NCBI GenBank assembly: GCA_019321725.1 | Contig: CM033114.1 | Coordinates: 15,852,278-15,916,277, forward strand | DNA: 64,000 nt | Source of the DNA: Paulownia fortunei | Taxonomy: Eukaryota; Streptophyta; Magnoliopsida; Lamiales; Paulowniaceae | Direction: 5' to 3' | Shown here: positions 7,410 to 60,384 of the stretch, in pieces | Layout: the number at the start of each line of letters is the position of its first letter | Position numbering within the stretch: the stretch's first letter is position 1 | Made by a program: the position numbers and the translations under genes | Notes under the pieces: generated by a model | Told to the model about the DNA's origin: nothing | The model's input: only the letters and a program-made list of their open reading frames with translations | The model's database searches: none

Positions 7410-7414
7410 CTTTA

Positions 7415-12047: not shown

Positions 12048-12821
12048 CTTTAGGATTACAAGATACTCCTTGCAATAAGTCCAGTGCCCTAGTTTGCCAT
12101 AGTAATAGCACTTGTTATTGGCTTGAAAAGAAACTTTCTTGACACCGCCCTTAGCCTTCAACTTGTTGGATTTATATGAACCGTTTTTTTTTTCTTTCTT
12201 GGGCTTTTTAGCCTTCGATCCAAAAGAAGATCCAACAAGCAGAATAGGCTTGTCCTTTTTTATGATGGACTCAGCCATCTTTAACATGTTCACAAGCTCT
12301 GGGAGACTAGTCTCCGTATTGTGCATGTTAAAGTTGACAACAAAGCTATCAAATGACTAAGGCAGAGACTGCAACAAAAGGTTTCGTTCTCCATAATGAC
12401 TCTAAGGGACGTCAGCCTTTTACTGAGGGTCATCATCTTCAATCTATGATCATAGACTAAAGAGCACTCAGTCATACGACATCTAAAAAGCTTTTTTTGA
12501 GATCAATATCTCGTCAGCCAAGTTTGTTCACCATACAACTCTTATAGGTGAAGGACGATCCCATAAGCAATATCTTGATCCTCATTCTGCTCTGCAGTTC
12601 ATTTGACATTGATGCCAACATGTAGCATCGAGCCTACAGATTATCATCAACATGATATAGGTAATCTATATAAGCCTCTGAAGCAATATCCTCTGGAGGA
12701 ACTGAAGGAGGCGAGGCATCGAGGATAAGAACTATCTTCAGGTTTCTTAGCCAATCAACAATATTAGGTCAGGTCAATTTATTTTGTTCAAAGATTGCTG
12801 CAAGTGGATTCTTTGCCATTT
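12048..12821 (-). pseudogene. Copia gag (UBN2-type) with degenerate zinc knuckle
   Basis: The minus-strand ATG at 12821 starts MAKNPLAAIFEQNKLT, the usual start of this Copia gag class. Further landmarks are DWLRNLKIVL, LPELVNMLKMAES, a lysine-rich segment, and a zinc knuckle read as CYYYGKLGHWTYC (about 12080-12120) in which the second Cys of CX2C is Tyr. Stops and frame changes interrupt the central part. Gag would form the cytoplasmic virus-like particle and bind element RNA. The same start occurs in the plus-strand copy at 34792. Confidence 0.85.
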
Positions 12822-40744: not shown

Positions 40745-41659
40745 ACACCCAAGTACAAAGATCTAGGTTGTCCAACCATTTCATATATGATAGGAAACAC
40801 TAGAATATAGCGTGTTTTGCTTGATCTTGGTGCTAGTGTAAATCTTCTACCTTTCTCAGTTTATGAATAGTTAGGTTTGGGAGAACTTAAAACAACTTCT
40901 GTTATACTCAAACTAGCTGACCATTTGATTAAAGTTGCAAAGGGAGTAGTAGAAGATGTGTTGGTATAAATTGATAAGTTTTAGTTTCCAGTTGTTTTTA
41001 TTATTTTGGACATAGAGCCTGTTGCACAAACGCATACACAAATTCCTATCATTTTGGGTCCTTTTCTTGCAACTTCAAATGCTTTGCTCAATTGTAGGAA
41101 TGGTATTTTGAAGTTATCATTTGGAAATATGACTTTGGAACTAAATGTGTTTAATGTTTGTAAGCAACCTGCAGAATATGTCAAAGTACAGGAAGTGGAT
41201 TCAATCGAGGAACTTGTTCATGAATACTTTACTACCACTAACTCTTCAGATTCTTTGGAGACTTGTTTTAAAAGTGAAAGTATTTGTAAAAAGATACACG
41301 CTAATACTCTCTCTAAATTTTCGAAAGTACAAGAAAATTATTTTTGGAAGCCAAGGTTTGAAGAACTTTCATCATTAATAATAAAATATATTCCATCAAG
41401 TATTAAAGCTCCCGTATTTGAATTGAAACCTTTGCCAGATGATTTGAAATACTATTTCTTGGGTGAGAATGAGACTTTTCTAGTAATAATTTCTTCCAAA
41501 CTTGATGCATTTCAAGAAGGTAAGTTGATCGAAACTCTAAAAATGCATAAGAATGCTTCAGGATGGACCATTGTTGATATTAAAGGTATTAATCCTTTAA
41601 TTTCCACCCATAACATCTATTTAGAGGAAAATGCTAAACCTTCTAAAGAAATGCAATGA
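40745..41659 (+). pseudogene. Gypsy aspartic protease and protease-RT linker (element 1)
   Basis: The protease active site reads LLDLGASVNLLPFSVYE (about 40820-40870). DLGA in place of DTGA or DSGA is usual in Athila-like elements. An 217-codon open frame (41006-41659) continues through LGPFLATSNALLNCRNG and the linker to GWTIVDIKGINPLISTHNIY, the segment just before RT. A stop near 40868 and another near 40970 break it. The homologous part of element 2 is at 59371-60200. The protease would cleave Gag-Pol. Confidence 0.85.
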
Positions 41660-42520
41660 AGGCTAAATCCTAATATGAAACAAGTAGTGAGAAATTAAGT
41701 CATTAAACTCTTAGATAATGGAATCATTTATTCTATTTTTGATAGCAAAAAGGTAAGTCCTACTCAAGTTGTACCTAAGAAATCTGGAGTTACTGTAGTC
41801 AAGAATGAGAATGATGAATTAATTCCAACTAGGACTATTACTGGTTGGTGAATGTGCATTGACTATAGGAAACTCAACTTAGTTACTAGAAAATATCATT
41901 TTTCATTACCTTTCATGAATCAAATTTTATAAAGAGTTTGGGACATGAATTTTATTACTTTTTAGATAGATATTCTGGGTATAATCAAATTATAATTGCA
42001 CTTGAAGATCAAGAGAAAATAAATTTTACATGTCCTTTTGGTACTTTTTCATTTTGAATTATGCCTTTTGGATTATGTAATGTACCAGCTATATTCCAAC
42101 GATGCATGCTTAGTATTTTTAGTAACATGGTTGAACATTTACTTGAAGTCTTCATGGATGATTTTTCTATTTTTGGTAATTCATTTGACGATTGCTTGTC
42201 TAATTAAGAAAAGGTTTTGATCAGGTGTGAAAAAAAAATCTTGTGCTCAATTAGGAGAAATATCGTTTCATGGTAACAATTGGTATTGTTCTTGGACACA
42301 TTATTTCATGAAAAGGTATTGAGGTTGACAAACCTAAAATTGAGTTAATTACTAATTTGCCAACACCAAAGAATGTGAAGGAGGTAAGATCCTTTTTAGG
42401 ATATGTTGGTTTTTATAGAAGATTTATCAAAGATTTTAGTATAATATCTAAACCTTTGTATAATCTTCTAAAAAAAGACACTATTGTTGAATGGACTAAA
42501 ATTGTAAAAAAGCTTAAATG
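41660..42520 (+). pseudogene. Gypsy reverse transcriptase (element 1)
   Basis: Frames give RRLNPNMKQVVRN-like start (mutated), [13 protein letters not shown] (about 41860), MPFGLCNVPAIFQRCM (about 42060-42105), VFMDDFSIFGNSFDD with FMDD for the catalytic box (about 42150), and KNVKEVRSFLGYVGFYRRF (about 42370-42425). Several frameshifts and stops (for example near 41698 and 41850). Element 2 holds a longer open RT segment (58898-59347). Confidence 0.87.
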
Positions 42521-42945
42521 CATGCTTACATCTGCTCCAATCATGCATCCTCCATATTGGACTTTGCCTTTGAAATAATGTGTGATGCTAGTAAATATGT
42601 TGTTGGAGCTGTCTTGGGGCAAAGAAAAGATAAGAAACCATATGTTATTTACTATGCAAGTAAAACTTTAAATAGTGCTCAATTGTATTATTCAACAACT
42701 GAAAAAGAATTACTTATTGTAGTTTTTACATTGGACAAATTTAGATCTTATCTTATTGGCTCACCAGTTGTTGTTTTTAGTGATCATGCAGGTTTGAAAT
42801 ATCTTTTGTCAAAAAAAGATACCAAACCTAGACTGATTAGGTAGATTATTTTACTCCAAGAATTTAATATTACGATTCGAGATAAGAAGGGAGTAGAGAA
42901 TCTGGTGGCTGATCATTTGTTGAGACTTGTTTGTGATGACTTATT
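42521..42945 (+). pseudogene. Gypsy RNase H (element 1)
   Basis: The 108-codon open frame 42518-42844 carries [39 protein letters not shown] and [15 protein letters not shown], the usual order of Gypsy RNase H with its catalytic Asp, Glu and Asp. It is followed after one stop by LQEFNITIRDKKGVENLVAD. This is the best preserved enzyme region of the element. Confidence 0.9.
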
Positions 42946-44313
42946 TCGAACCACACCCATTAACGATGCTTTACTTGATAAACAACTATTTAATGTTTCT
43001 ATTTTACCTTGGTTTGCTGGCATTGTTAATTTTCTTGTGACAGGAAAGATGCCATCGCATTGGAACTCTCAACACAAAAAAAAGTTTTTGATTGAGGTGA
43101 AAAACTTTTATTGGGATGATCCATACCTATTCAAATATTGTCCGGATCAAATCTTTTGAAAATGTGTGCCTGAAAATGAGATAGGTAATATTGTTAAATT
43201 TTGTCATTCAGAAGCATGTGGTGGTCACTTTTCAGCAAAGAAAACCACTGCAAAAATCTTGCAATGTGGATTTTATTGGCCAACTCTTTTCAAATACACT
43301 TACACTTTCTGCAAAAGTTGTGAAAATTATCAAAAGTTAGGGTCCCTTTCAAAGCAAAATATGATGCCCCTACACCCTATCCTAGTGATTGAAATCATTA
43401 ACTGTTGGGGTATTGATTTTATGGGACCATTTCCATTATCATTTGATTTTCTTTATATATTGGTTGCCATAGATTATGTTTCAAAATAGATCAAGGCAAT
43501 TCCTTGTCGAAATAATGATAGAATTTTTGAAAAAAAATATTTTAAGTTGATTTGGGATTCCTCGATCTATTATTTGTGAAGGGGAAAAAAAATTGTAACA
43601 AAGTTTTTGGAACTTTAATAAGAAATTTGGAATCATACATAAAGTTGCAACCCCTTATCGCCCTCAGACAAATGGACAAGTTGAACTTACAAATAGAGAG
43701 ATAAAATAAATTTTGAAAAAGACAGTTAACCCAAACCGTAAAGATGGGTCTCTTAGACTCACCGATACACTTTGGGCATATAAAACTGCTTTCAAACATC
43801 ATTAGGCATGTCTCCTTATAGGATAGTTTATGAAAAATCTTGTTATATACTTATTGAACTTGAACATAAAGCTTATTGGACAATCAAAATGTTAACTTCA
43901 ACCTTGATGAAACTTCAAAATTGCACAACTTGCAAATCAATGAACTTCAAGAATTGAGAAATGATACATATGAAAATTCTAAAATTTATAAAGCAAGAAT
44001 CAAAGATTTGCATGATAATAAAATTTTAAGAAAAACATTTGAGGTTGGTCAAAAGGTTTTGCTTTATAATTCTCTATTGCATTTGTTTCTTGGAAAATTA
44101 GGATCAAGGCGGAGCGGTCTTTTTGTTGTAAAAAAAGTATATCCTTATGGGGCGATTGACATTGAAAATCCTAGAAATGGTAACATATTCAAAGTAAATG
44201 AACAAAGAGTTAAACCATTTCTAGATAATCAATTTTCACAAGAGAAAATTCTTTTTCTTTCTAACCCTTATTATGATAAGAGTTGTATATATATATATAT
44301 ATATTTTCTTTGA
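42946..44313 (+). pseudogene. Gypsy integrase with C-terminal domain (element 1)
   Basis: The zinc-binding HHCC domain is visible as FCHSEACGGHFSAKKT and CKSCENYQKLG (43200-43340), then INCWGIDFMGPFP with the first catalytic Asp (about 43415) in the open frame 43166-43489. The core after the second Asp is frameshifted (43490-43870). The 145-codon frame 43876-44313 is the C-terminal domain: LQINELQELRNDTYENS, GQKVLLYNSLLHLFLGKL and VNEQRVKPFLD. The frame's last residues translate a TA microsatellite and are not protein. Confidence 0.88.
44285..44305. repeat. TA microsatellite
   Basis: About ten TA dinucleotides just downstream of the integrase C-terminus. The corresponding place in element 2 (about 56745) has a shorter TA/CA tract. 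Confidence 0.9.
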
Positions 44314-44477
44314 CTTTATTTGTTTTGAAGGCTTTTTTTTCTTTTATGGATTAAGTGGCGGATAACGATACTCCGTGGCTATTAAAGTCGGACTTATCAG
44401 TTTCCCAAATAATTGAAATATCTATATAAAGTTTTTCTGCTTTTCTCATTCTATTTTCTTGTTCTTTTCAAAATGGA

Positions 44478-45097
44478 TGACTTTCTTCTAACTCTGATTT
44501 CCTTTTCTTCCTAAAAATGCAATTTTAAAAATTTATAAAATCAGGATCGAAAGATTAAGGATGCTTATGCACAAGGGCATCCCACATGATATACGATAGA
44601 TACTTGAAGCAAAGGTAAGAGCACGTGAGTTTTCACATGAGTTTCCAGATTTGCTTACTAGATACATGCCTGATTTTGGTAAAAGCACATATTCAACAAA
44701 ACGAAGGGCGAAAAAAATGAAAGTTTATCACAATTGTGCCAGATGGACTTGCAACACAAAGTGTCGTTCTTTATGAATGGTTTCTAAAAATTGAGAAAAT
44801 AAACTTAAATTCATTATGGAGGACTGAGTAAGGAGTCTTTAAATTACATTATATTGACTCTTGAGATGCATTCATGTGGATTAGTACAACGTGTAATTCT
44901 TGATTTATGGGATCGCTTTCGAAATGAATATGAGTTTTATAGTCTTGAGAATCTAATATTAAAAGACCTTGTTTGCTAGTTTATAAGAAAACTGGATGGA
45001 AAGCATATCCTCGACCTATAGAGGGTGTTTAAGCCGTTATTGATATAAAACCAAAGAAAGATATGAGCCACAATCACAACTACATGTACATTCACAT
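44478..45097 (+). pseudogene. Unrecognised cargo ORF upstream of LOG (element 1)
   Basis: Between integrase and LOG, decayed coding-like sequence recurs in element 2 (55937-56570). A possible start ATGGATGAC follows TTTTCAAA in both copies. Readable segments are MLMHKGIPHDIR, AREFSHEFPDLLTRYMPDFG (about 44630-44685) and, in another frame, LNYIILTLEMHSCGLVQR, ILDLWDRFRNEYEFYSL and FIRKLDGKHILDL (about 44835-45020). I do not recognise the protein. It occupies the place of the env-like ORF of some Athila elements but could equally be part of captured host sequence. Both copies have stops and frame changes. Confidence 0.55.
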
Positions 45098-45508
45098 GTA
45101 AGTAGGTAATTTTAAAATTTTGTGTCCTTATTTTCAACATTTTTGATAAAAGAAAAAAATGTGTAATAAATGCATTCCCTATTTACAACTCAATAAATAG
45201 CACCATATGCACTCTATTTTTACACAACTTATTTTTAAAAAGAAAAAAAATTAAAAAAAATAAAAGTTTCTTCAACTCGCAAATTCAACTGCATTTGTGT
45301 CTTTTGTGGATCCAATCTAGGAAAAAAAAGTAAGTTTATAGGGGGCAGCCAATAACCTTGGTAGAACTTTAGTAGAAAGAAAAATTCATTTAGTCTATGG
45401 GGGAGGCAGTTTGGGGTTAATAGGGAGTGTTGCTATTTCTGCTTATATTGGAGTAGTCAAAGTTCTGGAAGTTATTCCAAAATCTTTTAACAGTATAGAA
45501 TATCACAG
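45098..45508 (+). other. Intron-like 411-bp block, precisely absent from element 2
   Basis: The block starts GTAAGTAGGT and ends AATATCACAG. Element 1 reads ACATTCACAT before it and GTATGACCATCGG after it; element 2 (minus strand, junction at 55936/55937) reads ACATTAATATGTATGACCATTGG, the exact joined product. The block carries the N-terminal part of LOG. Removal by splicing before reverse transcription is the simplest reading. A deletion using the short shared GTA is a possible alternative. Confidence 0.7.
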
Positions 45509-45902
45509 GTATGACCATCGGAGATGAGCTAAAAGTGTCACATATTTAGGACAAAATGCCTAACATGTTAAACAATGCGGATGCATTCATCATTCTACTT
45601 GGCAGTTTTGGTATACTGGAGGAATTATTCCAAGTTGTCTCTTGGGCACAACTCAACATTACCAGAAATATAGGTATGTTAATTGTTTTTATGATGGTTT
45701 GCTATCTTTTGTAGATCATGTTGTGAAAAAAAGTTTTATTTCACTATCTGCGAGAAAAATCCTCATTTATCCGACACCTGACCAACTGATTGATCAATTT
45801 CTAGCTTATGTGCTAGAACCTAATCTAGCCTTGGCCCATATGGATTGGTCCAATAGGAATAATAGTCAAAAATGCAAATTGAATTTGACTCTCAGTCTGT
45901 GA
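45269..45902 (+). pseudogene. LOG-like: LOG-like cytokinin riboside 5'-monophosphate phosphoribohydrolase, captured copy
   Basis: LOG hydrolyses cytokinin nucleotides to active free bases. N-terminal part: KFNCICVFCGSNLGKK (45280-45325), then in shifted frame NNLGRTLVERKIHLVYGGGS, LGLIGSVAISA and VLEVIPKSF (45350-45490). C-terminal part: MTIGDELKVSHI, stop, DKMPNMLNNADAFI, a PGGYGTLEE-type motif degraded to LGSFGILEE (about 45605), and FQVVSWAQLNI. The open frame 45642-45902 continues with GLLSFVDHVVKKSFIS and a PTPDQLIDQFLAYVLEPNLALA tail. Order and spacing match the ~215-residue plant family over nearly the whole length. At least one stop, two frameshifts and a lost Pro-Gly exclude activity. 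It sits inside element 1, between the unknown ORF and the 3' region. No introns interrupt the C-terminal half, which suggests capture from RNA. Confidence 0.85.
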
Positions 45903-47494
45903 AACTTATTGTTAATTGTTTCATTTAATAGTGTGTGTTTTGTGTTGTTTCAGCTTTATTTTTTTTTAGCCACACTTCAGGTGATATCTTTTAAACTCTA
46001 CTTTCCTATCTATTTTTGACATTAGGGACAATGTCTTGATTAGGTTAGATGAGGGATAGTTGATATCATGACTTGCATGTTCAATGAGTGTTTTTCTAGT
46101 ATTTTATTTCAAAAAAAAAATCAAGCGTGTTTTCCTATAGGTTCGTTGAAACCATGAAAAATGGTGGCATAGTAAAGGTAATTGTAACACTCTTGAGACG
46201 CATCCCTATTTTTTGCATAACATGGCAAGTTTGTGAAGTTTTTAACAAAAATTAAGCATGAATAATGTGGTTTGATTGATGATGGGTGTTGTTTTGGACG
46301 TTGATGTTGTTATTTGGTTAATATATTTTTGCGATAATTATATTCATTTTTTTTTGCATGAATAGTTATGTTATTCAGTGCGAAGATAATCATGTCAAAA
46401 TAGAAAGTTCTTATGCCCTCGCTCTAATTATCACTTGGATCTTCAATATGTAGGTGTTCAATATTAGGCTTTCTAGCATCATTGCCAAATCAGCTTATTC
46501 CCCATGTGATGTTCCAAGAGAACATCTCCCTAGTGAGCCACTTTGAACCTTTCAATAAATAAATATTTTCTTTTGTAACCATATCTTTTTACTTAGCCTA
46601 AATACACTATTATCCAACCCTTGTTCTAAAAATAATTTGGAGTTTAAGAGACAATCCATTGACAGGGTGAACTTGTAAAAAAATTTAGGTGGGAGTAGAA
46701 GATAAGTGTGGGGGAGTTTCTCTTCGATTAAAAAGAAAAGTAAAGAAAAGAAAGATTGCAAATTGCTAAAAATATTATGAGTTGCAACTAAAAATAGGAT
46801 ATTACAAGATGAAAAAAAAATTAAGAGGGGTCTAATTCAATAATAATACACCCCAGTATCGAAATTTATGGAGTTTGAGAATTCTTCATCTAAAAACTCT
46901 GTCTCTAATTCAATAAAATTTTTAGAACCTTTGTTGTGTTCCATCTTTTTATTTCTTAGCCACGTCACTACCCTTTGGCCCCATTACAACCTTTGTTGAA
47001 GACCTTTTGATTTCGTGTGATACATTCAGTGTAGTGGAGATCTGCACCAAATGAAAAGTCTATGATGTTTAACTTTTCCATTAGAGATTGAGTGATGATT
47101 TTTGTAAGGTTCTATGAGAATTCAATTGTTTGAAACATGCATAGTTTCGTCACTGTTGACACTAACTATCCACACACACACTTGAGTATGCTTATTATTG
47201 AAATGTATTGACTTTTGAATGACTAAGAGTTAAACTCAATATTTGTTTGATTTCATTTCCATATTACTTTGTTGCTTCCTAAGAGTAATAGTTGGAAGAT
47301 AGTTATCATAGGTGTTTGTGGGTATCATCACTGGAAACCCTCACGAGACTATAACTCATCCTCTATAAGCCACCTAGGGGTTTAAAGGCTTGTTGCATAT
47401 GCTAAATGCAATCATGATTTTCTATGAAATCGAATTAGTTTAGGTTTGTTTAAGGCTTGCTCGAGGACAAGCAAGGGATAAGTATGGGGGAATT
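45903..47494 (+). mobile_element. Element 1 3' non-coding region and polypurine tract
   Basis: No gene. It is colinear with element 2 for several hundred bp (TTAGGTTAGATGAGGGATAG near 46040 matches TTAGGTTAGAGGAGGGGATAG on the minus strand near 55390), then diverges. A GCTCGAGGACAAGCAA motif (47459-47474) and the polypurine stretch AGTATGGGGGAA (47481-47492) precede the LTR. Confidence 0.78.
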
Positions 47495-49105
47495 TGATAA
47501 GTGCATATATTGACATATTTTTGTATCAAATCCTTTATACTTTTCTTACTTTATTCTTGTTAATATCATTGTTTTATTAATGTTTTGTGTTAGGGAATCA
47601 ATGAATATAAAAAGATCAAAAGAAACAGGTTTCCAAACTTGTGCAGTTTTTGTATTTTAGGCATAACTCCATGATTAAAAGCCTTATGGACCTAAATCTT
47701 ACTTCATTTAAAAACCAAGAGACAGGACTAAAACATTTTTGTTGGAAACTTAACCCAATGCAGTCTTGATTATAGTAGGAAATTCATCCAAATGGATGCA
47801 CAAAATGGATCACCGAAAAATCGGATAAGAGTTTAGCCCAATATTGACTTACTTGGCTAATTGGGTCATATCTCTTAAGCCCAAATTGATTTTAGGCTGA
47901 AATTTGGATATGTTATATGCAAGAGGTAAATAAACAAGTTTGTTGAGACACGATGTTGAGAAAATATGTCAAAATAGTAAAAACATATGCTATACTGTGT
48001 TGCTATTGCTGAAGGATGGCTCTTTGATATAATTCGGTAATTTGACCATATCTCCCTCATCCAACAGCCAAATTTGACAAATGATATATGAAAATATATC
48101 AACATCAAAAGATTGACAACTTGTGTTTTTTATGCATAATCAAAATTTGGTTGTATCTGACCTATAAATGCAATTCAATCGGGCAAGTGAGAATTTTGAG
48201 GACTTGGTGTAAAAAGTTACCAACTCTTGGCAACTAGCATACCACTTGATTAACTCCTCTATTATTTTTTTGGCCTCTAGGATACTCCAAGTACTATAAA
48301 TAGGCCTTGTATTAAGCTTATAAGAGAAGGGGGTAAAGGATTTCTTTAGGCTAAGTTTTCTAGTAATGTAAGCTTTCTAGTAGTAATAGAAATGCATTCT
48401 CTAGTTTCTCTTCTATTTTTAGTTTTTTCTACTTTTATTATGTCTTTCTAAATTTAATTTTGCTAAGAAAAAAGGGTGAACCTCTTGATGGAGGTTATAA
48501 GGGTAGAAAATATTTAAGTATGTTGTATTATTATTTTGAGTTTTGATCTAAACCCTACTTATTTTGTGGTGATTCTTGATTTATGTATCTCCAATGGCAC
48601 AACAAATATTTGGGTTCATTTAGCTTATTGTGTGGGTCTACCCACCGATTGCTAATGTGAAACCTTGATTTGTTGTTGATAAAGGTGTGCATAAATGCTT
48701 GATCCCATAAATAAGTGTTTGACATTAAGAGATAATCTACAAATAGTAAACACAATATCCTGATTACTTATTGTATGAGCAATTTGATAATATCTTTTCA
48801 TTGGAACCTTCATTATGTATGGATTTCAATAGTGGCAATTAAGCGAGGTAAAAAGAATAAATAACTGTTTCTCTATCCAAAACTCAAGAGTGGATCCCTA
48901 ATCCTCAATACTTTATTTACTTTGGTTTTCCATTAGTTACAACATACATTAATTTTTCATATATTTTGAATCACATAAATCCTATTTTTTTTAGAATTAT
49001 AATCCTGAATTCTTCAAGCGGCTTCCCTATGGATCGACGTCAGACTTACGAGAAATTCATTATTTAATACAACCTGTACTTAGTTTGCAACCTTAATGTC
49101 ATAGC
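47495..49105 (+). repeat. 3' LTR of Athila-like element 1
   Basis: Starts TGATAAGTGCATATATTGAC right after the polypurine tract. A possible promoter is the CTATAAATAGG at about 48294. The end is near CTGTACTTAGTTTGCAACC (49072-49095), the usual Athila LTR end. RT coding of another element starts at about 49106, so no flanking duplication can be read. Confidence 0.8.
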
Positions 49106-50125
49106 AACTAATACCAACGAGAATGGTCACAGGTTAACGAGTATGTATTGATTATAGAAAACTCAACAAAGCTTCTCGTAAAGACCATTTTCCCCTTCCA
49201 TTTATTGATCAAATGTTAGACCGACTTGCTGGTGTCAATACTATTATTTTCTTGATGGTTATTCGGGTACAATCAAATTGTCATAGCACCTAAAGACCAA
49301 GAGAAAATAAAATTCACATGCCCTTATGGTACTTTTGCTTTTCGAAAAATACCATTTAGATTATGCAATACCCTTGCCTTCAAAGATGTATTATGGCAAT
49401 TTTCATGATATGTTGGAGAACATAATAAAAATTTTTATAGATGATTTTTTCAGTTTTGGGCTCCTCATTTGATATATGTCTACATAATCTTTCTCTTATT
49501 TTAAAAAGGTGTGAAGAGACTAACCTTCTTTTAAATTGGGAAAAAGTGTCATTTTATGGTAAAATATGGTATTATTTTAGGTTACCGAGTGTCCTCCAAA
49601 TGACTTGAGATAGACTGAGCAAAAATTACTGCTATTGAAAAACTTCCACCACCAATCAATGTGAAAGCTATTCATTATTTTTTGGGACATGCTAGGTTTT
49701 ATAGAAGATTCACTAAAGATTTTTCAAAAATTATAAAATATTTGTGCAATCTTTTGGAGAAAGATAAGCCATTTGATTTTAATGTTGATTTCCTACAAAC
49801 CTTTGATCACATCAAGAAGGCTCTCATTTCAGCACCTATTATGGTGGTACTGGATTGGACTCGATCATTTGAGCTTATGTATGATGCTGCTAGTGATTAT
49901 GCGATTGGAGCGGTGTTAGGACAAAAAATACCGATCATGCTGCGATTAGATATCTCTTTGCTAAAAAATATGCAAAACCAAGGCTAAATCGATGGATACT
50001 CTTTCTTCAAGAATTCGATCTTGAAATCAAAGATGAGAAAGAAAGTGAAAATGTGGTGGCTGATTATTTATCAAGGTTGGGAAGAAAAATGGGAATTTTG
50101 AAAGGCCAATTAAAGAATTTTTCCT
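49106..50125 (+). pseudogene. Athila-like RT/RNase H, second subfamily, internally deleted
   Basis: Begins abruptly in RT at IPTRMVTG, then [20 protein letters not shown] (about 49140-49205), FIDDFFSFG (about 49440), and the open frame 49661-49987 with FLGHARFYRRFTKDFSK and [19 protein letters not shown]. RNase H jumps from GAVLGQK to a [12 protein letters not shown] segment (about 49925), a deletion of the domain's middle. It ends with [20 protein letters not shown]. It differs from element 1 in many residues and matches 40466-40740 closely. Confidence 0.83.
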
Positions 50126-51395
50126 AAATGAGTTATTTTGCAGGTGTATTATTACCCCTAGACCTCACATATCTTCAAAAGAAAAAAATTCTTACATGAT
50201 ATAAAATCATATCTATAGGATGATCCCTTGCTCTTCAAAAGGTATCTAGATTCTATGATTTGGAGATGCATTCCAATGGAGAAAACAAATAAAATTCTAA
50301 AGCATTGTTATTCATCCCTATATGGTACTCATTTTACACCTACAACGATAACTTCTAAGGTATTGCAATCCAATTTTTATTGACTAACTTTGTTTAAGGA
50401 TTGTTATGCTTTTGTGCAGACATGTGACCAATATCAAAGGGTTGGAATAATTACTAGATATTATGAGCTTCCTTCCACAAACATAATGGAAGTTGAACTC
50501 TTTGATGTTTGGAGGATTGACTTCATGGTACCATTTCCTCCATCAAATAGTCGATCATACAGTTTTCTTGTTATGGATTACGTTTTCAAGTAGATAGAAG
50601 TAATTGTCACACCTACTAATGATGCCTAAATAGTGCTTAAATTCTTGTATAAACACTTTTTCACTCATTTTGGCACATCTAGAGCAATTGTAAGTGATGA
50701 AAATTCTCATTTTTGTAATAAAATATTTATTAACCTTTTGGCTAAGTATGGTGTAAGATAAAAGGTTGCTCTTGGATACCATCTCAATAAAATGGACAAG
50801 TCAAAATCTCAAATCAGGAAGTGAAGCAAATCCTTGAGAAAACGGTAAGCATTAATCAAAAGGATTGGGCACATAAGCTTAATAATGTCATATGGGCATA
50901 CCGCACAACATATAAAACTCCTATACGTATGTCTCATTATCGATTAGTTTTTGGAAAAGCTTGTCACATCCTCGTTGAGCTAGAACATAGAGCATATTGG
51001 GTTGTGCAATAATTAAATTTTGATATAAAGGTAATTGGGGAAAATACATTATTGCAACTCAATGAAATGGAGGAATTTAAGCATGATGCCTATGAAAACA
51101 CAAAAATATATAATGAAAGAACAAAACAATAGCATTACAAAATCAACTTGAGAATGGAATTTCAACCCGGACAACTTATGTTGCAATTCTAGATTAAAAC
51201 TTTTTCCTAAAAAATTAAAATCTTGATAATTCAATCCCTTCATTGTCAACAAGACATTTCAATTTAGGATGGTTAAGCTCAACGGTAAGGATGACACATT
51301 ATTTCATATCAATGGACAAAGGTTGAAGTATTATTATGAAAATGAAATTTGGAAGATGTCTAATCTTCCACTTAGAGAGGTAACCTAAGGTAATT
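50126..51395 (+). pseudogene. Athila-like integrase, second subfamily
   Basis: Landmarks: KHCYSSLYGTHFTPTTITSK-like zinc-binding start (about 50300), CDQYQRVGIITRYYELPS and VWRIDFMVPFPPSNS (50430-50545), [13 protein letters not shown] (about 50810-50850), and [20 protein letters not shown] (50863-50925) with the conserved AYRT motif. The C-terminal domain is read in fragments to about 51330 (INGQRLKYYYEN). Stops at 50593 and elsewhere make it inactive. The part after it contains no LOG block. Confidence 0.83.
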
Positions 51396-52909
51396 GGTTT
51401 CGATCTAGCTAAAGACTTTAAACAAAGCATTTCTTATGGGGCAACCCAAGCTCTCTCATTTTTGTGTGTGTTGTTGTATTTCTTGTTATTCTTGTATTAT
51501 TTCATGTCATGATGATTGTTCCTTCATATTTTACTCATTTTTGAGGTTAAAGGTTGAAAATTCAAAAATTGTAGAGAAAAAAGTACATGCATGCGCTGAA
51601 AGAAAATCTCCAGTCCTTCCTGCATACTCATTATCTTCGTCTGATTACACCCTTCCCACCTAGGACTGAACACCATCCATTTTCAGAAAAGTCTTTTTCT
51701 TTTACATTTCTCTCAATCATTGAGGACAATGCTGATATTAAGGTTAGGGGGGATTTCAGGAGTTTAGGATAATTGCTTGTTGCTAGAAAAGTTTAATGCT
51801 TGTTTGTGCATGTTTGAAAAAAAAGTGAATATTAGAACATGTATGTTTGTTTATGTGTCTAAACATAAAAAATTTATTTTATTTGCTTTATGAGGTCTTA
51901 TGAATCTTGATGCACTAAGTAGTTTATTGAGTTATATTTAATTATTTGTAGAAAATTTATAAGGTCTAATTGTTTTCAAAATGATCCCACCAACCTCTAG
52001 AATTTGTTCGATTACTAGTCGAGGTGAAATCCTAGGTGGCATAGCATTAGGGAGATGATTTGGTCCAGTTTTAGACCATTTTAGCCTTTGAATCCAACCT
52101 ATACTTGAATAATTCCCTAGTGTCCCCTCTTGAGCCTATTGAAATAATTCTTTGGACACCCCATACACATTATCGAGCTTTATGCAAAATTCTAATTTTT
52201 GACCCTTTTTCTTCTCATTTACACAATCATTCTTTATTAAATTGTTGTATTAAAAAAAATAAAGAGAAGAAAATATATGAAGAGATTATGAATTAAGTGT
52301 ATAATTTGAACTCCCTAAAATAAACAGACCCTCATTGCATACACAAAAGAAATAAGTTTTGGGAGTAAACCAAGATCAAAAAGAAGAAAAATGGGATGTT
52401 CAGTAAAGAAAAATGAAGGGATTGATGAAAAAATTGGTGCTCGTTCATAAAGGTTCTAATATGATTATGTAAAATAGGTAATTTTTAGGTACAATTTTCC
52501 ATATTTTTCCACTATTAGCAAAGTCTCACAATACAAGATTTGGAAGTACTTTTGATCATTGGTGCTATGATCTACCTGCATTAGTGGAGACTAGTGTAAA
52601 AAACAAGCTTATGGAGTTTGATAAGCACTTCAAAAGTGGACCAAATAGGAAAAGTCGGTTTTATAAACCTATTCGGATAATAAATGAAAGTTGATATACT
52701 ACTACTTTTATACTCACATACACAAGACCATAAAGTTAAGTAAAACTAATATGCATGTTAACATGTAAACTTGGTATATTTTCTAATCTTTTCATATGAT
52801 ATGTTAGAAAAATCTTTCTTGACTTTAGTAACCTGATTCATAGAGGGGTTGTTATTGAGAATTCCTATTTGATGCTTGAGGACAAGCAATCTTCAAGTTT
52901 GAGGGTATT
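51396..52909 (+). mobile_element. Athila-like 3' non-coding region, no cargo
   Basis: Between integrase and the LTR at 52910. It resembles 13565-15165 in organisation: a TATTAAGGTTAGGGGGGATT segment, purine-rich AAAGAGAAGAAAA tracts (52255-52275), a CTTGAGGACAAGCAATC motif (52875-52891) and a GTTTGAGGG polypurine tract before the LTR. No gene and no LOG sequence seen, in contrast to elements 1 and 2. Confidence 0.72.
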
Positions 52910-54680
52910 TGATATGTTGGTTTTATACCAAAAATTAATATTACTTTTGATTAACATTTGGTTTGTTTTTAAATGTTTATATTACATTTTATGCATTTAT
53001 TTTGAAATCTTGTAAGTAATGGCTAAATTAGAAGAAAATGGAAAAAAACAAAAACTTGGTTGAAATTTTAAAAAAATCGCATTGTGATCCTAGTGATGGT
53101 AGTTTTTGTATTTCAATCATAACTCTTTGCTCCAATATCACATTGACTTGATTCTTGATCCATTGGAAATCAAGAAATAGATCTACAACTTTTATGTTTT
53201 CCATGAAATCTAGTTCTTTCGATTTCAATAAAAAAAAAATGAGTTCAAGAGTCAATTTTGGACTGAAACTTTCTAGTACGATACATTTTGGTGCTTTAAG
53301 CATAACTCTCTCCAAAAATTTCTATCAAGTTGATTTAAGTATATATGGAAAGCCATGACATAAATTTACAATTCATTACAGGATATAAAATGCAAACTCA
53401 GACTAGAAACAACTCAAAAATGGCTTGCAAGAAGAATAATCAGACTACTTGGAACTACGGTGCCAAACTCAGAGTAGCGGCGCCAGCTTAAAAGAAAGTT
53501 TCCAGATTGTTTAGTGCCACGGCACTAGAGGACAGATTATTTGGCACTGTGGTGCTAGAAATCAAAGCTATGACACTAGTTTAATTTGTGCTCTGACAGA
53601 CAGTTTGGGTCCATGGTCCCGGAATTCAAAGTCGCGGCCCCAGTTCGCGAAAAATCTAAAACTTGATTTTTAAGTCCGATTTTAGGACTTTTTTGGGAGG
53701 ACTTTAAAAACAACTTCTAAGACAAATTTTGGGCCTTCTTTCGGCTGAAAAATATGAAGGAAAATGAGAGGAAAAATAGGGAAAAATCCAAGAAAAGGGA
53801 AGGATTTTAGGGTTTTTTTTTGGAAGACTCTTGACGGAGGAATCATCTTGAGAGAAGATTGGCATCAACCAAGGGGATGCTTGGAGAGAAGGAGCCATTC
53901 CGGGGAGACAAGGAGAGCTTCAACCATTCTTCTCACTTCACAAATTGGTGAACAATTTCCATGTTATTTCTTATGTATTTCTTGAAGTTGTATTCATCTA
54001 TGATGAACTAAACTTTTCTTTTTAGAGGATGATGTAACCTTATTTGATCCTATATTTTAAGTTCCAAACAATATTAGTTCAAGTTATTCATCTTGTTTGT
54101 GTTATCTTGTTTAGTATTGCATCTTGATTACTTGGCCACTAATTGTAATTATTTGATGTATGAGATTTGATACTCGAGAGATGGAAGATTCTACATAATC
54201 ATAAGGATAACATAACCTAGGAATCATAGAGCCTTTGAAGTGTTGAAGAAGAATTCATTGAAATTTGTAGAGTTTTATTGTTGAATTTTTATAGAGATAA
54301 TGAAATTCATGTTGGAACTCACAATCAATTCGGCACTCGAGAGAGGAATTGATGAGTTTAGGAATTCTTAACTTACATATGTTGTTGAATTGAATTGGTA
54401 TGTTTTGGAAGAAGAACATAGGTGAAATTAGATGAATCATTCCTCTTGAATTTCTTGCTCATAAGGTATTTGTTGTATTGCTTCTAAGAACTTCACTTTT
54501 GTCTTTGTATTTTTTATCTTACTTTACTTTGTTTACCAGCCATCACTTACTTTTCTAGATAAAATTGGGAATATTTGAACTACGGTACTTGATGCAATTT
54601 TTTATTACAATCCTTGTGGATACTCAACTCAACTCACCATTGTATTAAAATTTGACACCGCGTACTTGCGGTTTGTAAAA
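52910..54680 (+). repeat. Athila-like 3' LTR
   Basis: Starts TGATATGTTGGTTTTATACC after the polypurine tract and ends near GACACCGCGTACTTGCGGTTT (54653-54673). The last ~570 bp are an inverted match of 18432-19024. A GC-rich cluster of short inverted words (GTGCCACGGCAC, GGCACTGTGGTGC, GGTCCATGGTCCC) lies at 53455-53650. The 73-codon frame at 53764-53985 is leader-like sequence after the cluster, not a gene. Confidence 0.8.
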
Positions 54681-54783
54681 TATTCTACGAACAGTTTGAA
54701 ATACCCACTCTGTCTGACCAAAATATGCCTCAAAATTTCATTGGTTAACCTTAAAACAAAATGGTGATTTTTTCTATTTTTTG

Positions 54784-54806
54784 TTTTTTTTTTTTTTTTT
54801 TTTTTT
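54784..54806. repeat. Poly-T run (23 T)
   Basis: A pure T23 tract near the junction of the plus-strand LTR end and the 3' region of element 2. On the minus strand it is A23. It may be a simple replication-slippage tract; no gene or target duplication ties it to a retrocopy tail. Confidence 0.9.
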
Positions 54807-55217
54807 AACAACATGACTCGCATGATAACAGAAGATCAAAAGAATGTTTTTTTAACAACATGCAAGGTAGACATAATTAAGCATCTCAAATTGTAACAAA
54901 ACTAATTTAAATGATCAATTAAAGTTCAGAATGCTTGTTTTCTTAAGTTTTCCACTTATTCATAAAATATGTGTGAATATTAAAAGTAAGCACTTTAACA
55001 TGGTCAAAATTTTCAGTTATATCTATCGCAACCAATCTTTCCACAAGGCTTAGGATGTGTACAAGACTAATTATTTTTTTCAATATAGTACCCTTAGACT
55101 CTAACAAAAAGAAGATTGCAATAATATTTTGACAATTCACAAAATTTCAATTAAAAACATCACAAACATGCCATGTTTCTCATGATTTCAATTGATCTAA
55201 AAGAAAACATGCTTGAT

Positions 55218-55373
55218 AAAAAAAAATTGAAAAACACAGATTGAACACACAAGATATGATATCAATTATTAAAAAAAACTAGAAAACACACATTGAACAC
55301 ACAAGACATGATATCAACTATTAAAAAAAATTATAAAACACATATTGAACAAACAAGACATGATATCAACTAT
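55218..55373 (-). repeat. Three tandem 52-bp units in element 2
   Basis: Units 55218-55270, 55271-55322 and 55323-55373 each hold an A-run, AAACACA.ATTGAACA and GATATCAACTAT. Element 1 has a single counterpart (about 46068-46125), so the triplication arose in the lineage of element 2. Confidence 0.85.
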
Positions 55374-55529
55374 CCCCTCCTCTAACCTAATCCAGACATT
55401 ATCCTCAACGTCGAAAATAGATTGAAAAGTAGAGTTTAAAAATTATCACCTGAGAGGTGGCTTATTAAAAAAATGAAGCTAAAACAACAAAAAACATAAA
55501 CTATTACTTGAAACCATTAAGGATAAATT

Positions 55530-55936
55530 TCACATGCTGAGAGTCAAATTCATTTTGTGTTTTCGATCACTGTCCAGGTTGGACCAATCCTCACAGGCCA
55601 AGGCTGGATCATTTTCTAGCACATATGCTAGAAGTTGATCAATCAGTTGGTCAGGTGTTGGAACAAAAATTAGGATTCATCTCGTAGATGGTGAAATAAA
55701 ATCTTTTTTCGCAACATGATCTACAAAAGATGGTAAACCATCATAGAAACCATTAACATTAAGAATACCTACAGGTTTTTGGTGAATGTTGAGTTGTGTC
55801 TGAGAGACAACTTGGAATAATTCTTCTAGTGTACCAAAACTACTAGGTAGAGTGATAAATGCATCCACATTATTTAAAATGTTAGGCATTCTGTCCTGAA
55901 TATATGACACTTTTAGCTTATCTCCAATGGTCATAC
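55530..55936 (-). pseudogene. LOG-like: LOG-like C-terminal half, captured copy in element 2
   Basis: From the splice-like junction at 55936 the minus strand has an ATG (55934) and reads 134 codons with a single TGA (55677-55679). Sequence parts: MTIGDKLKVSYIQDRMPN, VDAFITLPSSFGTLEELFQV, HQKPVGILNVNGFYDGLPSF, VDHVAKKDFISPSTR, stop, then PTPDQLIDQLLAYVLE. The catalytic PGGYGTLEE motif reads PSSFGTLEE: both Gly replaced, GT and EE kept. The family's N-terminal CVFCGSS and YGGGSIGLMG parts are absent, so the nucleotide site is incomplete. It is better preserved than the copy at 45269-45902. It lies directly after the unknown cargo region. Confidence 0.88.
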
Positions 55937-56570
55937 ATATTAATGTACGTGTAGTTGTGATTGTCGCTCACATCTTTCTCTGGTTTTACATCCAATAACG
56001 GCTTAAACATCGTCTAAGGGTCAAGGATATGTGTCCCATATAATTTTCTTATAAACTAGCAAATAGGGTCTTTTAATGTTAGATTCCCAGGACTATAATG
56101 CTCATATTCATCCCAAAAGTGATTCCATAAATCAAGATTTGCATGATGTACTAATCCATATGAATGCATCTCAAGAGTCAATATAATGTCATCTAAAAAC
56201 TCTTTATTCAGTCCATCCATAATGAATTGAATTTTATCTTCTCGATTTTTAGAAACTATTCTTAAGGAATAACACTTTGTATTATAAATCCATCGAGCAC
56301 ATTTATGACAAACTTGAATTTTTTTTCACCCTTTATTTTTTTGAATATTTGCTTTTACCAAAACTAGGCATGTATCTAGTAAGCAAGTTTGCAAACGCAT
56401 GTGAAAACTTACCTACTACTCTTACCTTTGATTCAATTATCCATCGTATGTCCCTTGGGATACCCTTGTGCATAAGCATCTTAATCTTTCAATCCTGGTT
56501 TTATAAATTTTTAAAATTGCATTTTTATGCAGAAAAAAAAATCACTTCTTGAGAGTTAGAAGAGTGTCAT
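55937..56570 (-). pseudogene. Unrecognised cargo ORF upstream of LOG (element 2)
   Basis: Counterpart of 44478-45097. A possible start ATGGATGACACTC lies at about 56571. Segments in common: MLMHKGIPRDIR (about 56470), FANLLTRYMPSFGKSKYS (about 56350-56400) and HNYTYI next to the junction at 55937. It is interrupted by stops and frame changes in other places than in element 1. The function is not recognised. Confidence 0.55.
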
Positions 56571-56819
56571 CCATTTTGAAAAGAGTAATGAGAAAAAAAG
56601 AAAAAACCATGTAAAGAGATTTTAGTTGTTTAGAAAACCAACAAGTCCAACTTTAATAGCCACAGAGTACCGTTATCCACCACTTAATTGCATAAAGGAA
56701 AAAAAAAGCCTACAAAATGAATAAAGTCAGAGAAAATAAGTAGATATACACACACTAATCATAATAAGAGTTAGAAAGAAAAAGAATTTCCTCTGTAAAA
56801 ATTGATTTTCTAGAAATAA

Positions 56820-57950
56820 TTTGAGTTTTTGTCCATTTACTTTGAATACGTTACTATTTCTAGGATTCTCATGTCAATCGCCCTATAAGGATATAACGCT
56901 TTTATAATAAAAGGACCACTCCACCTTGATCTCAATTTTCCAAGAACCAAATGCAATTGAGAATTATAAAGCAAAACCTTTTAACCAACCTCAAATATTT
57001 TTTCTTGAAATTTTATTATCATGAAAATATTTTTTATTCTTGCTTTATGAATTTTAGAATTCTCATATGCATCATTTCTCAATTCTTAAAGTTCATTGAT
57101 TTATAATTTGCACAATTTTGAAACTTTATCAAGGTTTAAGTTAAATATTGTGATTGCCCAATAAGCTTTATGTTCAATTTTAATAGGTAAATGACAAGGT
57201 TTTCCATAAACTATCATATAAGAAGTCACGCCTAATGATGTATTGAAAATAGTTCTATATGCCCAAAGTATATCATCAAGTCTAAGAGACCAATATTTAT
57301 GATTTAGATTAATTGTCTTTTTCAAAATTTATTTTATCTCCCTATTTGCAAGTTCAACTTGTCTATTTGTCTAAAGATGATAAGGGATTACAACATTATG
57401 TATGATTCCATATTTTCTCATTAAAGTCCTAAAAACTTTGTTACAAAATAATTTTTCCCCCATTACTGATAATGGATCGAGGAATTCAAGATTGACATAA
57501 AATATTTTCTTTCAAAAAAATTTATCACTATTTTGTGATCATTATTTCTATAGGGAATTGCCTCAATCAATTTTGAGACATAATCTTGACGACCAATATG
57601 TAAATAAAACCAAATGATAATGGAAATGGCCCAAGAATTCATTACCCCAACATTAAAAGATGTCAATCATTAGGATAGGGTGTAAGGGCATCATGTTTCA
57701 CTTTGAAATAGATTCTAACTTCTGATAATTTTCACAACTTTTGTAAAAAGTATAAGTGTCTTTAAAAGTGGTTGGCCAATAAAATCCACCATATGCTTCT
57801 AAATGACCAAATTTAACAATATTACATATCTCATTGTCAGGCATGCATCTTCAAAAGATTTGATCAAGACAATATTTAAATAGGTATGGATCATTCCAAT
57901 AAAAGTTTTTAACCTCAATCAAAAACTTCTTTTTGTTTTAGGAGTTCCTA
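56820..57950 (-). pseudogene. Gypsy integrase (element 2)
   Basis: Minus-strand order: FLIEVKNFYWNDPYLFKYC (about 57880), zinc-binding region with a partial deletion (EAYGGFYWP for the EACGG...FYWP seen in element 1), SCENYQKLE, GNEFLGHFHYH in place of GIDFMGPFP (first Asp changed), then the open frame 57101-57325 with HKYWSLRLDDILWAYRTIFN and KPCHLPIKIEHKAYW, and a C-terminal domain to about 56830. Dead by stops and loss of the catalytic Asp. Confidence 0.85.
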
Positions 57951-58560
57951 TCACAAGAAAATTAACAATTTCATCAAACTAAGGTAAAATAGAAACATTA
58001 AATAGTTGTTGATCAAGGAAAGTATCATTAATATATGTGGTTTGAAATGAGTCATTACCAACAAGTCTCGACAAATGATCAACCACCACATTCTCTACTC
58101 CTTTCTTATCTTAATTTGTAATGTTGAATTCCTGAAGTAAGAGAATCCACCTAATCAGTCTAGGTTTGGCATCTTTTTTTGACAAAAGATATTTTAAAGC
58201 TTCATGATCACTAAAAATAACAATTGGTGAGCCAACAAGATAAGATTTAAATTTATCTAATATAAAAACCACAAAAAGTAATATTTCTCAATTGTTGAAT
58301 AATTCAATTGAACATTATTTAAAATTTTACTTGCATAGTAAATGACATATGGTTTCTTATCTTTTGGTTTTCTTTTCCTAAGCCAGCTCCAATAACATAT
58401 TCACTAGTATCATACATTATTTTAAAAGGTAAAGTCTAATCTGAAGGTTGTAGGATTGGAGCAGACGTAAACATGCTCTTAAGCTTAACAAAAGTGTTTT
58501 CACAATTTTCAGTACATTCAAATATAGTGTTTTTTATTAGAATATTACACAGAGGTATAG
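57951..58560 (-). pseudogene. Gypsy RNase H (element 2)
   Basis: The minus strand reads, with stops and frameshifts, [17 protein letters not shown] (about 58310-58360), [20 protein letters not shown] (about 58160-58220) and FNITN.DKKGVENVVVDHLSRL (about 58070-58130). It corresponds to 42521-42945 of element 1 but is less intact. Confidence 0.8.
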
Positions 58561-59370
58561 ATATAATACTAAAAATTTTGATAAATCTTTTATAAAAACT
58601 AACATGTCCTAAAAATAGTCTTCCCTACTTCACAGACTTCGATATTGCAAATTGACAATTAACTCAATTTTAGATTTGTCTACTTAAATATCTTTTGACA
58701 AAATAATATGTCCAAGAACAATACAAGTTGTCAGCATAAAATGGCATTTCTCCCAATTGAATACAAAGTTCTTTTCACATCTGATGAAAACCTGTTCAAA
58801 ATTAGACAAACAATCATCAAATGAATTACCTAAAATATAAAAAAAATCATCCATGAATACTTCAAGAAAAATGTTCAACCATGTCACTAAAAATACTTCA
58901 AGAATGTAGTTGGTGCATTACATAATCCAAACGGCATACTTCAATATGCAAAAGTACTAAAAGGACATGAAAAGTTATTTTCTCTTTATCAACGAGTACA
59001 ATTGCAATTTGATTATACCTAAAATATCCATCTAAGAAGTAGAAAATTTCATGTCCTGCAACTTTTTCTAAGATTTGATCTATGAAGGGTAGCGGAAAAT
59101 GATCTTTTCTAGTAACTGAATTGAGTTTCCTATAGTCAATGTACATTCGCCAACCAGTAACATTTCTAGTTGGAATTAATTCATCATTATCATTCTTGAC
59201 TACAATAACTCTAGATTTCTTAGGTACAACTTGAGTAGGGTTTACCCAGTTGCTATCATAAATAGGATAAATGATTTCATTATCTAAGAGTTTAATGACT
59301 TCATTTCTCATTATTTCTTTCATATTAGGATTTAGCCTTCGTCGCATCTCTCTAGAAGGTTTAGCATTTT
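58561..59370 (-). pseudogene. Gypsy reverse transcriptase (element 2)
   Basis: The 149-codon open frame 58898-59347 carries MRRRLNPNMKEIMRNEVIKL, TQVVPKKSRVIVVKN, NVTGWRMYIDYRKLN and [20 protein letters not shown]; 58684-58887 continues with VFMDDFFYILGNSFDDCLS, the catalytic box as FMDD. A frameshift separates them where MPFGLCNAP-type sequence is expected. It is the best preserved RT in the window. Confidence 0.88.
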
Positions 59371-60200
59371 CCTATAGGTAGATGTTATATGTACAAATTA
59401 AAGGACTAATACCCCTCATGTCAACAATGGTCTATCCTAAAGCATTTTTATGCATTTTCAAAGTTTCGTTCAACTTACCTTATTGGGATGCATCGAGTTT
59501 GGATGAAATTGTTATTGGAAAAGTCTTATTCTCATCCAAGAAAGAGTATTTCAAATCAAATTCAAAGGTTTCAAATTAATCACAGGAGCTTTAATACTTG
59601 ATGGAACATATTGTACTATTGATGATAAAAGTTTTTCAAACCTTGGCTTCCAAAATATTTTTCCTATACCTGCAAAAATTTAGAGAGAGTATTAGAGTGT
59701 GACTTTTAACAAATACTTTCACTTTCAATATTCATGAAGAAGTACCTCGATTGAATCCACTTCATGTACTCTAATATCTTCTGCAGGTTGCGTACAAATA
59801 TTAAATACAGTTAGTTCCAAAGTCATTTTAAAAGATAACTTCAAAACACTATTCCTAAAATTAATCAAAGCATTTGAAGTTGCAAGAAAAAGATGACCCA
59901 AAATGATAGGAATTTGTGTATATGTATATGTAACAAGCTTTGTGTCCAGAAAATGAAATCCATTGGAAAATAAAACTTATCAATTTATACCAACACATCT
60001 TCTACTACTCTCTTTGGAACTTTAATCGAATGGTCAACTAGTTGGAATGCAACAAAAGTTGTTTTAAGTTCTTCCAAACCTAACTATTCATAAATTGAGA
60101 AAAGTATAAGATTTACACTAGCACCAAGGTCAAGCAAAGCAAGCTCTATTCAAGTGTTCCCTATGGTACATAAAATGGTTGGATAATCTAGATCTTTGTA
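59371..60200 (-). pseudogene. Gypsy aspartic protease and linker (element 2)
   Basis: The protease active site reads ALLDLGASVNLILFSIYE (about 60090-60140), then a HSIKVPKRVVEDVLV segment (about 59995-60030) and the linker to RT, parallel to 40820-41659. Multiple stops. DLGA again replaces DTGA. Confidence 0.8.
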
Positions 60201-60384
60201 CTTGGGTGGAGTGAATTGTTGAATGATTGAACTAACACTTTCAGCTAAAAATACATTTTTTTGTGCATGATGTTTTTTTTTTTATTGTACACAAATCTTT
60301 CAAAAATTTGGCAAAGAAGGAACTTGTTTAATTATATCTAACAATGGAATATTAATATTGACTTGTTGAAAGAGTTAAAATATT

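What the first reader, a model, noticed from the sequence alone, without database searches (positions are those of the whole stretch)
45269..55936. A plant cytokinin-activating gene (LOG) captured by an Athila-like retrotransposon, present in two element copies
Seen: LOG-like sequence at 45269-45902 (+, N- and C-terminal halves) and 55530-55936 (-, C-terminal half), each between integrase and the 3' region of colinear Athila-like elements. Both share the same upstream cargo region, so capture predates their divergence and the element moved with the gene inside. Known: LOG releases active cytokinins; retrotransposon capture of host genes is known (for example maize Bs1), but I know of none with LOG. 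Inferred: capture through RNA, since the C-terminal half has no intron, followed by decay (PGGYGTLEE to PSSFGTLEE and LGSFGILEE). Younger copies elsewhere in the genome could still be open and expressed.
Basis: partly seen in the sequence, partly recalled or inferred. Interest (0 to 1): 0.86.

Follow-up and report, generated by a model that had tools for sequence, protein, structure and literature searches.

The report
Retrotransposon carrying a modified LOG gene
Two decayed copies of a plant jumping element carry a copy of a cytokinin-activating enzyme gene; relatives of that gene are intact and multi-copy in several plant genera with an altered substrate pocket and a conserved tail, and next to it lies a small gene resembling a plant RNA-virus zinc-finger protein.

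Summary
In detail: LOG-like (PF03641) sequence lies in sense after the integrase in two colinear Athila-like elements. Both window copies are dead and differ evenly over codon positions, so they decayed neutrally after insertion.

It is not the first case: a LOG-type domain in Gypsy elements of Citrus and Populus is in print (PMC9289625, citing a 2011 survey). The guess of open copies elsewhere is supported: proteins up to 77% identical are intact in Paulownia, with relatives in Rehmannia, Orobanche, Reevesia and Populus forming one clade.

Beyond the finding: (1) of 127 near-full-length listed relatives, 117 keep the catalytic Arg and 121 the catalytic Glu, but none keeps the pocket Lys or Glu of canonical LOGs, and 117 end in a basic + LxLxL-like tail absent from 45 bacterial-type LOGs; so it is probably not a plain cytokinin-activating LOG. 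(2) The shared upstream cargo is a small Cys-rich gene whose intact relative passes Pfam's cut-off for the carlavirus nucleic-acid-binding protein (PF01623), a family known for silencing suppression.

Activity, expression and element context outside the window were not tested; the host genome could not be searched.

The parts
40746..46094 (+). Element A, part colinear with element B: protease region, RT, RNase H, integrase, cargo, 3' region (protease and RT named by inspection)
   Evidence: blastn self-comparison 40746-45100 vs 60208-55934 and 45509-46094 vs 55936-55335 at about 82%
42518..42841 (+). RNase H of element A
   Evidence: PF17917 E 7e-29
43160..43486 (+). Integrase zinc-binding domain and following core, element A
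   Evidence: PF17921 E 1.2e-11; about 318 nt separate it from the RNase H piece
44473..44824 (+). Small Cys-rich, basic protein gene (carlavirus nucleic-acid-binding-protein-like), element A, broken by stops and a short gap
   Evidence: tblastn with P0122 and P0121; stop-free piece 44600-44775 hits PF01623 at E 8.2e-4, 19.7 bits, below the 20.9 cut-off
45266..45902 (+). LOG-derived gene, element A, both halves, with frameshifts and stops; ends in the family tail
   Evidence: tblastn with P0001, PF03641, translation
47485..47500 (+). Polypurine tract and start of the 3' LTR of element A (by inspection)
   Evidence: TGGGGGAATTTGATA found once in the window, at 47485; no LTR pair found
55335..60208 (-). 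Element B, part colinear with element A
   Evidence: blastn self-comparison
56203..56574 (-). Same small Cys-rich protein gene in element B, frameshifted
   Evidence: tblastn with P0121 and P0122; piece 56056-56325 alone has no Pfam hit
55530..55955 (-). LOG-derived gene, C-terminal half, element B (one stop, N-half deleted)
   Evidence: PF03641 E 9.8e-24, PDB LOGs, tblastn

Best explanation
Shown: both copies are dead members of an Athila-like Gypsy lineage whose region between integrase and 3' LTR holds two small sense genes: a Cys-rich basic protein with an intact relative that matches the carlavirus nucleic-acid-binding family, then a LOG-derived protein. The LOG-derived protein belongs to one clade with intact, multi-copy members in five named plant genera, a predicted LOG fold, a mostly kept catalytic Arg/Glu pair, a changed base pocket (Lys100 to Met/Leu/Ile, Glu125 to His/Gln) and a conserved, predicted disordered C-terminal tail (basic residues, then LxLxL-like). 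Inferred: the clade as a whole lives in retrotransposons, and LOG was captured once from a plant LOG mRNA and kept as an accessory gene because it helps the element. Most likely mechanism (inferred, about even odds): it still hydrolyses a nucleoside monophosphate, but not the usual cytokinin nucleotide or not with the usual specificity, while the tail takes it to the nucleus and to a host co-repressor; with the zinc-finger protein it changes the host cell state or silencing in favour of the element.
Against: No DNA context was seen for any relative outside the window, so 'in a retrotransposon' is shown only for the window copies and, from print, for Citrus and Populus consensuses. The host plant LOG comparison rests on two Arabidopsis chains. 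The 127 rows come from the top 120 of each of two searches seeded with this clade, so their uniformity is partly selection. Residues alone may not tell activity: passages of PMC11593424 say that wheat LOGs with the same critical residues differed in their main product. No substrate, localisation or expression data. Five of 21 dereplicated rows do not end in LxLxL: four Orobanche and one Reevesia. The zinc-finger match spans 37 residues and only 1 of the 2 database proteins passes the cut-off; its fold model is poor (pLDDT 53).
Confidence: 0.5

Rival explanations
1. The element carries an ordinary cytokinin-activating LOG that raises active cytokinin in the cell and so drives division of cells in which the element is copied.
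For: Catalytic Arg and Glu and the PGGxGT motif are kept in most of the 127; the fold matches Arabidopsis LOG structures; two Populus members are named LOGL10 (P0143, P0182). Residues do not always predict LOG activity (PMC11593424 passages).
Against: Lys100 and Glu125, placed by passages of PMC4979012 at the adenine/prenyl pocket, are absent in 127 of 127. The same passages say that alanine swaps of the AMP-binding and catalytic residues, Ser19 excepted, nearly abolished activity.
Confidence: 0.22
2. Passenger capture: the LOG fragment was picked up by chance, has no function, and simply decays, as in the window.
For: In the window A and B differ evenly at the three codon positions in LOG (22/21/16), the zinc-finger gene (17/14/13) and 7 of 8 pol segments.
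Against: That pattern shows only that both copies died after insertion. Elsewhere the ORF is intact, with catalytic residues and tail conserved in rows 56-69% identical to P0001.
Confidence: 0.12
3. The relatives in other genera are dispersed host LOG genes, and only the Paulownia-type lineage sits in a retrotransposon.
For: No genomic context was obtainable; some carry LOG gene names.
Against: Uninterrupted ORFs on short contigs, copies on many different contigs of one species, one clade apart from the two Arabidopsis LOGs, and the printed report of LOG domains in Populus and Citrus Gypsy consensuses.
Confidence: 0.12
4. The Carla_C4 match is convergence: a short basic stretch with cysteines native to the element, not a relative of viral proteins.
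For: The match spans 37 residues; only 1 of 2 database proteins and neither window copy passes the cut-off.
Against: E 2.4e-6 above the curated cut-off and a second weak hit to Viral_NABP (E 0.0041) for P0121; 0 of 8 scrambled controls hit either family.
Confidence: 0.35

Closest known systems
YgdH/LOG domain in Gypsy consensuses of Citrus sinensis, C. clementina and Populus trichocarpa (PMC9289625 passages; Steinbauerova et al. 2011 as cited there, not held)
   Same: LOG-type domain as an extra domain of a plant Gypsy element
   Different: The passages seen give no lineage, no pocket or tail analysis and no zinc-finger neighbour
Additional ORFs (aORF-3S) between pol and 3' LTR, as in Athila (PMC7264820, parts 1 and 2 of 3 read)
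   Same: Position and sense orientation, presence in many copies
   Different: Sense ones described there are env-like; these are LOG-derived and virus-zinc-finger-like
Arabidopsis LOG structures 2a33 (At2g37210) and 1ydh (At5g11950)
   Same: Fold, PGGxGTxxE motif, catalytic Arg and Glu
   Different: Pocket Lys and Glu replaced; extra conserved C-terminal tail
Carlavirus nucleic-acid-binding (Cys-rich) protein, PF01623
   Same: Profile match over the basic stretch and cysteines
   Different: In a retrotransposon, no other viral gene noticed beside it; function untested
Orchid Gypsy elements with an AlkB RNA demethylase ORF (PMC9289625 abstract and passages)
   Same: Host-type enzyme fixed in a Gypsy lineage
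   Different: Different enzyme; activity there shown in vitro

Membership tests
LOG / lysine-decarboxylase-like superfamily (PF03641, TIGR00730) | Profile match above the curated cut-off and LOG fold | tested here: met
Cytokinin-activating LOG (phosphoribohydrolase) | Catalytic Arg99 and Glu122, PGGxGTxxE | tested here: met
   Arg99 in 117 and Glu122 in 121 of 127 near-full-length relatives; the motif is damaged in both window copies
Cytokinin-activating LOG (phosphoribohydrolase) | Adenine/prenyl pocket residues Lys100 and Glu125 | tested here: not met
   0 of 127 and 0 of 127; 56 of 56 bacterial-type, both Arabidopsis chains and 4 of 4 Sapindales rows keep them
Cytokinin-activating LOG (phosphoribohydrolase) | NCBI equivalog NF058542, cut-off 300 bits | tested here: not met
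   107-123 bits for 4 of 4 proteins tested; the model serves bacteria and archaea, so this weighs little
Cytokinin-activating LOG (phosphoribohydrolase) | Release of cytokinin base from its riboside monophosphate | not testable with these tools
   Needs purified protein
Athila clade of Ty3/Gypsy | No additional RNase H between RNase H and integrase | tested here: met
   About 318 nt between the RNase H and integrase H2C2 pieces in A; clade definition from PMC6317226 passages
Athila clade of Ty3/Gypsy | Place in an RT/RH/INT tree | not tested
   No reference set of element proteins at hand; the name Athila-like rests on the row above and on recalled motif likeness
Athila clade of Ty3/Gypsy | Athila ORF-1 domain (PF03078) | tested here: inconclusive
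   No Pfam hit in two pieces upstream in B; PMC6317226 reports it in 16% of Athila elements
Carlavirus nucleic-acid-binding protein (PF01623) | Profile match above the curated cut-off | tested here: inconclusive
   Met by P0121 (27.8 vs 20.9 bits); P0122, an N-terminal part, no hit; window piece of A 19.7 bits, of B no hit
Carlavirus nucleic-acid-binding protein (PF01623) | RNA-silencing suppression, nucleic-acid binding | not testable with these tools
   Reported for viral members in PMC12172455 passages

The most novel reading that the evidence does not exclude
An Athila-like retrotransposon lineage has carried, since before the split of its host genera, a two-gene host-manipulation cassette: a virus-type zinc-finger silencing suppressor and a LOG enzyme rebuilt for a different nucleotide, aimed at the nucleus and at co-repressors by a new tail. 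It would be a retroelement that acts on host nucleotide or hormone signalling and on silencing at once.
Probability: 0.25. Interest if true: 0.88.

Novelty: new variant of a known kind. Interest (0 to 1): 0.62.

Why it matters
In what I could read, LOG domains in Gypsy elements are mentioned only in passing. If the clade is under selection, plant retroelements have kept a hormone-pathway enzyme for a long time and changed its pocket, which makes the question 'what do extra ORFs of plant retrotransposons do' directly testable by enzyme assay. It also warns that genes named LOGL10 in poplar may be element genes, which would distort counts of LOG gene families. A zinc-finger neighbour of viral type would link plant RNA viruses and retrotransposons in gene exchange.

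Tried and rejected
Window's own genome: the genome search was asked the same question 11 times and never answered, so copies were not counted, LTR pairs not dated and no dN/dS computed. Viral contigs: with P0001 0 relatives in 10 stretches; with the 8-row alignment 30 loci in 156 stretches, best 41-42% identical, two of 52% over 33 residues, set aside as non-plant LOGs by identity alone; with P0121 0 in 3. Genome contigs with P0173: 3 loci in 34 stretches, all bacterial by title, best 51%.

Segmental duplication: set aside because similarity does not run on as one block past 46094/55335 or 40746/60208; beyond lie pieces of 35-99 nt on the 3' side, some in colinear order and so perhaps element remnants, and pieces of 242-435 nt at 65-72% on the 5' side. 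No target-site duplications were looked for. Piece between the two cargo genes (about 44825-45097): open in one frame of B but for two stops that A shares, no Pfam family (weak SHQ1, E 0.03); unexplained. Structure of P0121: too poor to search.

Paper searches: none listed a paper joining carlavirus proteins or PF01623 with retrotransposon cargo; of 3 papers naming PF01623 two concern glyoxalases and one a soybean carlavirus, none opened. No search was made for the pocket change or the tail as such. Rows dropped: proteins under 195 or over 225 aa; P0082 and P0123-P0125 (Acer, Xanthoceras), which keep canonical residues, were counted apart.
Full report
What is there. The window is AT-rich (32% GC) and holds many diverged repeats. 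Two elements, A (+, 40746-46094 and on to an LTR start near 47494 inferred by inspection) and B (-, 60208-55335), are colinear. Both have pol followed by the same 3' cargo. In A the RNase H (PF17917, E 7e-29) and the integrase zinc domain (PF17921, E 1.2e-11) are about 318 nt apart; eight other pieces sent in that call had no Pfam hit at 0.01. That leaves no room for the extra RNase H that marks Tat elements of angiosperms according to PMC6317226 (passages). It supports Athila-like; no tree of element proteins was made.

The LOG gene. Copy B's C-terminal half matches PF03641 at E 9.8e-24 and Arabidopsis LOG structures. With the intact relative P0001, tblastn finds A at 45266-45878 and B at 55955-55533 and nothing else. 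B lacks 411 nt that A has (45098-45508). Both are in sense with integrase. Both are broken.

How the two copies relate. Over 4792 aligned sites A and B differ at 697 (14.5%, K2P 0.165). Differences fall evenly on the three codon positions in LOG (22/21/16 of 128/130/132 sites), in the zinc-finger gene (17/14/13 of 103/102/102) and in 7 of 8 pol segments; the exception, an RT piece, has p 0.043, uncorrected. So nearly all divergence came after both had inserted. The flanks are not shared as one block, which speaks for transposition rather than segmental duplication. No LTR pair was found, so no LTR date is given.

Intact relatives. A protein search with copy B listed 120 of 1097 matches, headed by 217-aa proteins of Paulownia fortunei and unnamed ENA contigs at 70-77% identity, then Rehmannia, Reevesia and Orobanche, with bacterial LOGs below. 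A search with eight of them listed 120 of 7131 (only the 8000 candidates sharing most words were scored), adding Populus (four taxa), many environmental contigs and Xanthoceras. ORFs such as 218 aa on a 905-nt contig fit a gene without introns. Clusters hold up to 205 members. In a tree of 59 rows the 43 rows of this type, window copy B included, form one clade (100/97); its sister is Xanthoceras plus Acer, then the two Arabidopsis LOGs, with bacteria as outgroup; Paulownia, Rehmannia and Orobanche group together, as do the Reevesia rows, and Populus rows mix with environmental ones.

What changed in the enzyme. PMC4979012 (passages) names Arg99 and Glu122 as proposed catalytic residues, places Met96, Lys100 and Glu121 at the adenine, and Met96, His97, Lys100, Glu125 and Trp129 at the inferred prenyl pocket. 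Among 127 proteins of 195-225 aa of this type, Arg99 is kept in 117, Glu122 in 121, Trp129 in 115, but Lys100 in 0 (Met 51, Leu 46, Ile 29, Thr 1) and Glu125 in 0 (His 75, Gln 49, other 3). All 56 bacterial-type LOGs, four Sapindales proteins, a Pseudomonas chain and both Arabidopsis chains keep Lys100 and Glu125. The window copies share the changed pocket (Met, Gln). NCBI's cytokinin-LOG equivalog cut-off of 300 bits is not reached by 4 of 4 tested (107-123 bits), though that model is made for bacteria and archaea. Against reading function from residues: passages of PMC11593424 tell of wheat LOGs with the same critical residues and different main products.

The neighbour. Between integrase and LOG both elements have a broken small gene, A 44473-44824 and B 56574-56203. 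A search with A's piece gave 2 proteins: P0121 (100 aa, four cysteines, precomputed PF01623) and P0122 (Paulownia, partial). P0121 reaches 27.8 bits for PF01623 (cut-off 20.9) and weakly PF05515 (17.6 vs 23); P0122 has no hit. Of 8 reversed or shuffled versions none matches either family; three have unrelated hits at E 0.1-0.2. Each window copy has lost one of the four cysteines. P0121 and the intact LOG P0002 both list a longest contig of 1730 nt, which hints that they lie on one contig; this was not seen. Passages of PMC12172455 describe such viral proteins as silencing suppressors, and one, of chrysanthemum virus B, as a weak suppressor and a transcription factor that causes hyperplasia.

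Known or new. PMC9289625 (passages) already reports the LOG-type domain in Gypsy consensuses of two Citrus species and, with a filter lifted, Populus trichocarpa. None of the 10 paper searches listed a paper on the zinc-finger neighbour or on this clade as a whole; no search asked for the pocket or the tail as such. The library is limited to open-licence papers.

Verdict. Real, a known kind, but a variant with features that point to a kept and altered accessory enzyme. The decisive data, genomic context and dN/dS of intact copies and an enzyme assay, are missing. Names of plant orders, and of the Arabidopsis loci as LOG3 and LOG8 where call outputs give only locus codes, are recalled.

Noticed in passing
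window 44473-44824 (+) and 56203-56574 (-): Small basic Cys-rich gene between integrase and LOG; its relative P0121 passes Pfam's cut-off for the carlavirus nucleic-acid-binding protein.
   Followed up: partly
window 44825-45097 (+) and 55956-56202 (-): Stretch between the two cargo genes, open in one frame of B except for two TAG stops that A shares; no known family.
   Followed up: partly
window 49619-51012 (+): Pieces that look like another Gypsy element with RT and integrase (by inspection of ORFs); tblastn with the LOG and zinc-finger relatives finds nothing after it, so not every such element here has the cargo.
   Followed up: partly
proteins P0123-P0125, P0082: Xanthoceras and Acer proteins that are sister to the element-type clade, keep the canonical pocket and lack the tail; the three Xanthoceras ones hold two LOG units.
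   Followed up: partly
proteins P0143, P0182 (Populus trichocarpa, P. nigra): Named LOGL10 but fall in the element-type clade, so LOG gene family counts may include element genes.
   Followed up: no
window 7405-12058: Large inverted repeat of about 2 kb, 86% identical arms (7744-9731 and 12058-10061).
   Followed up: no
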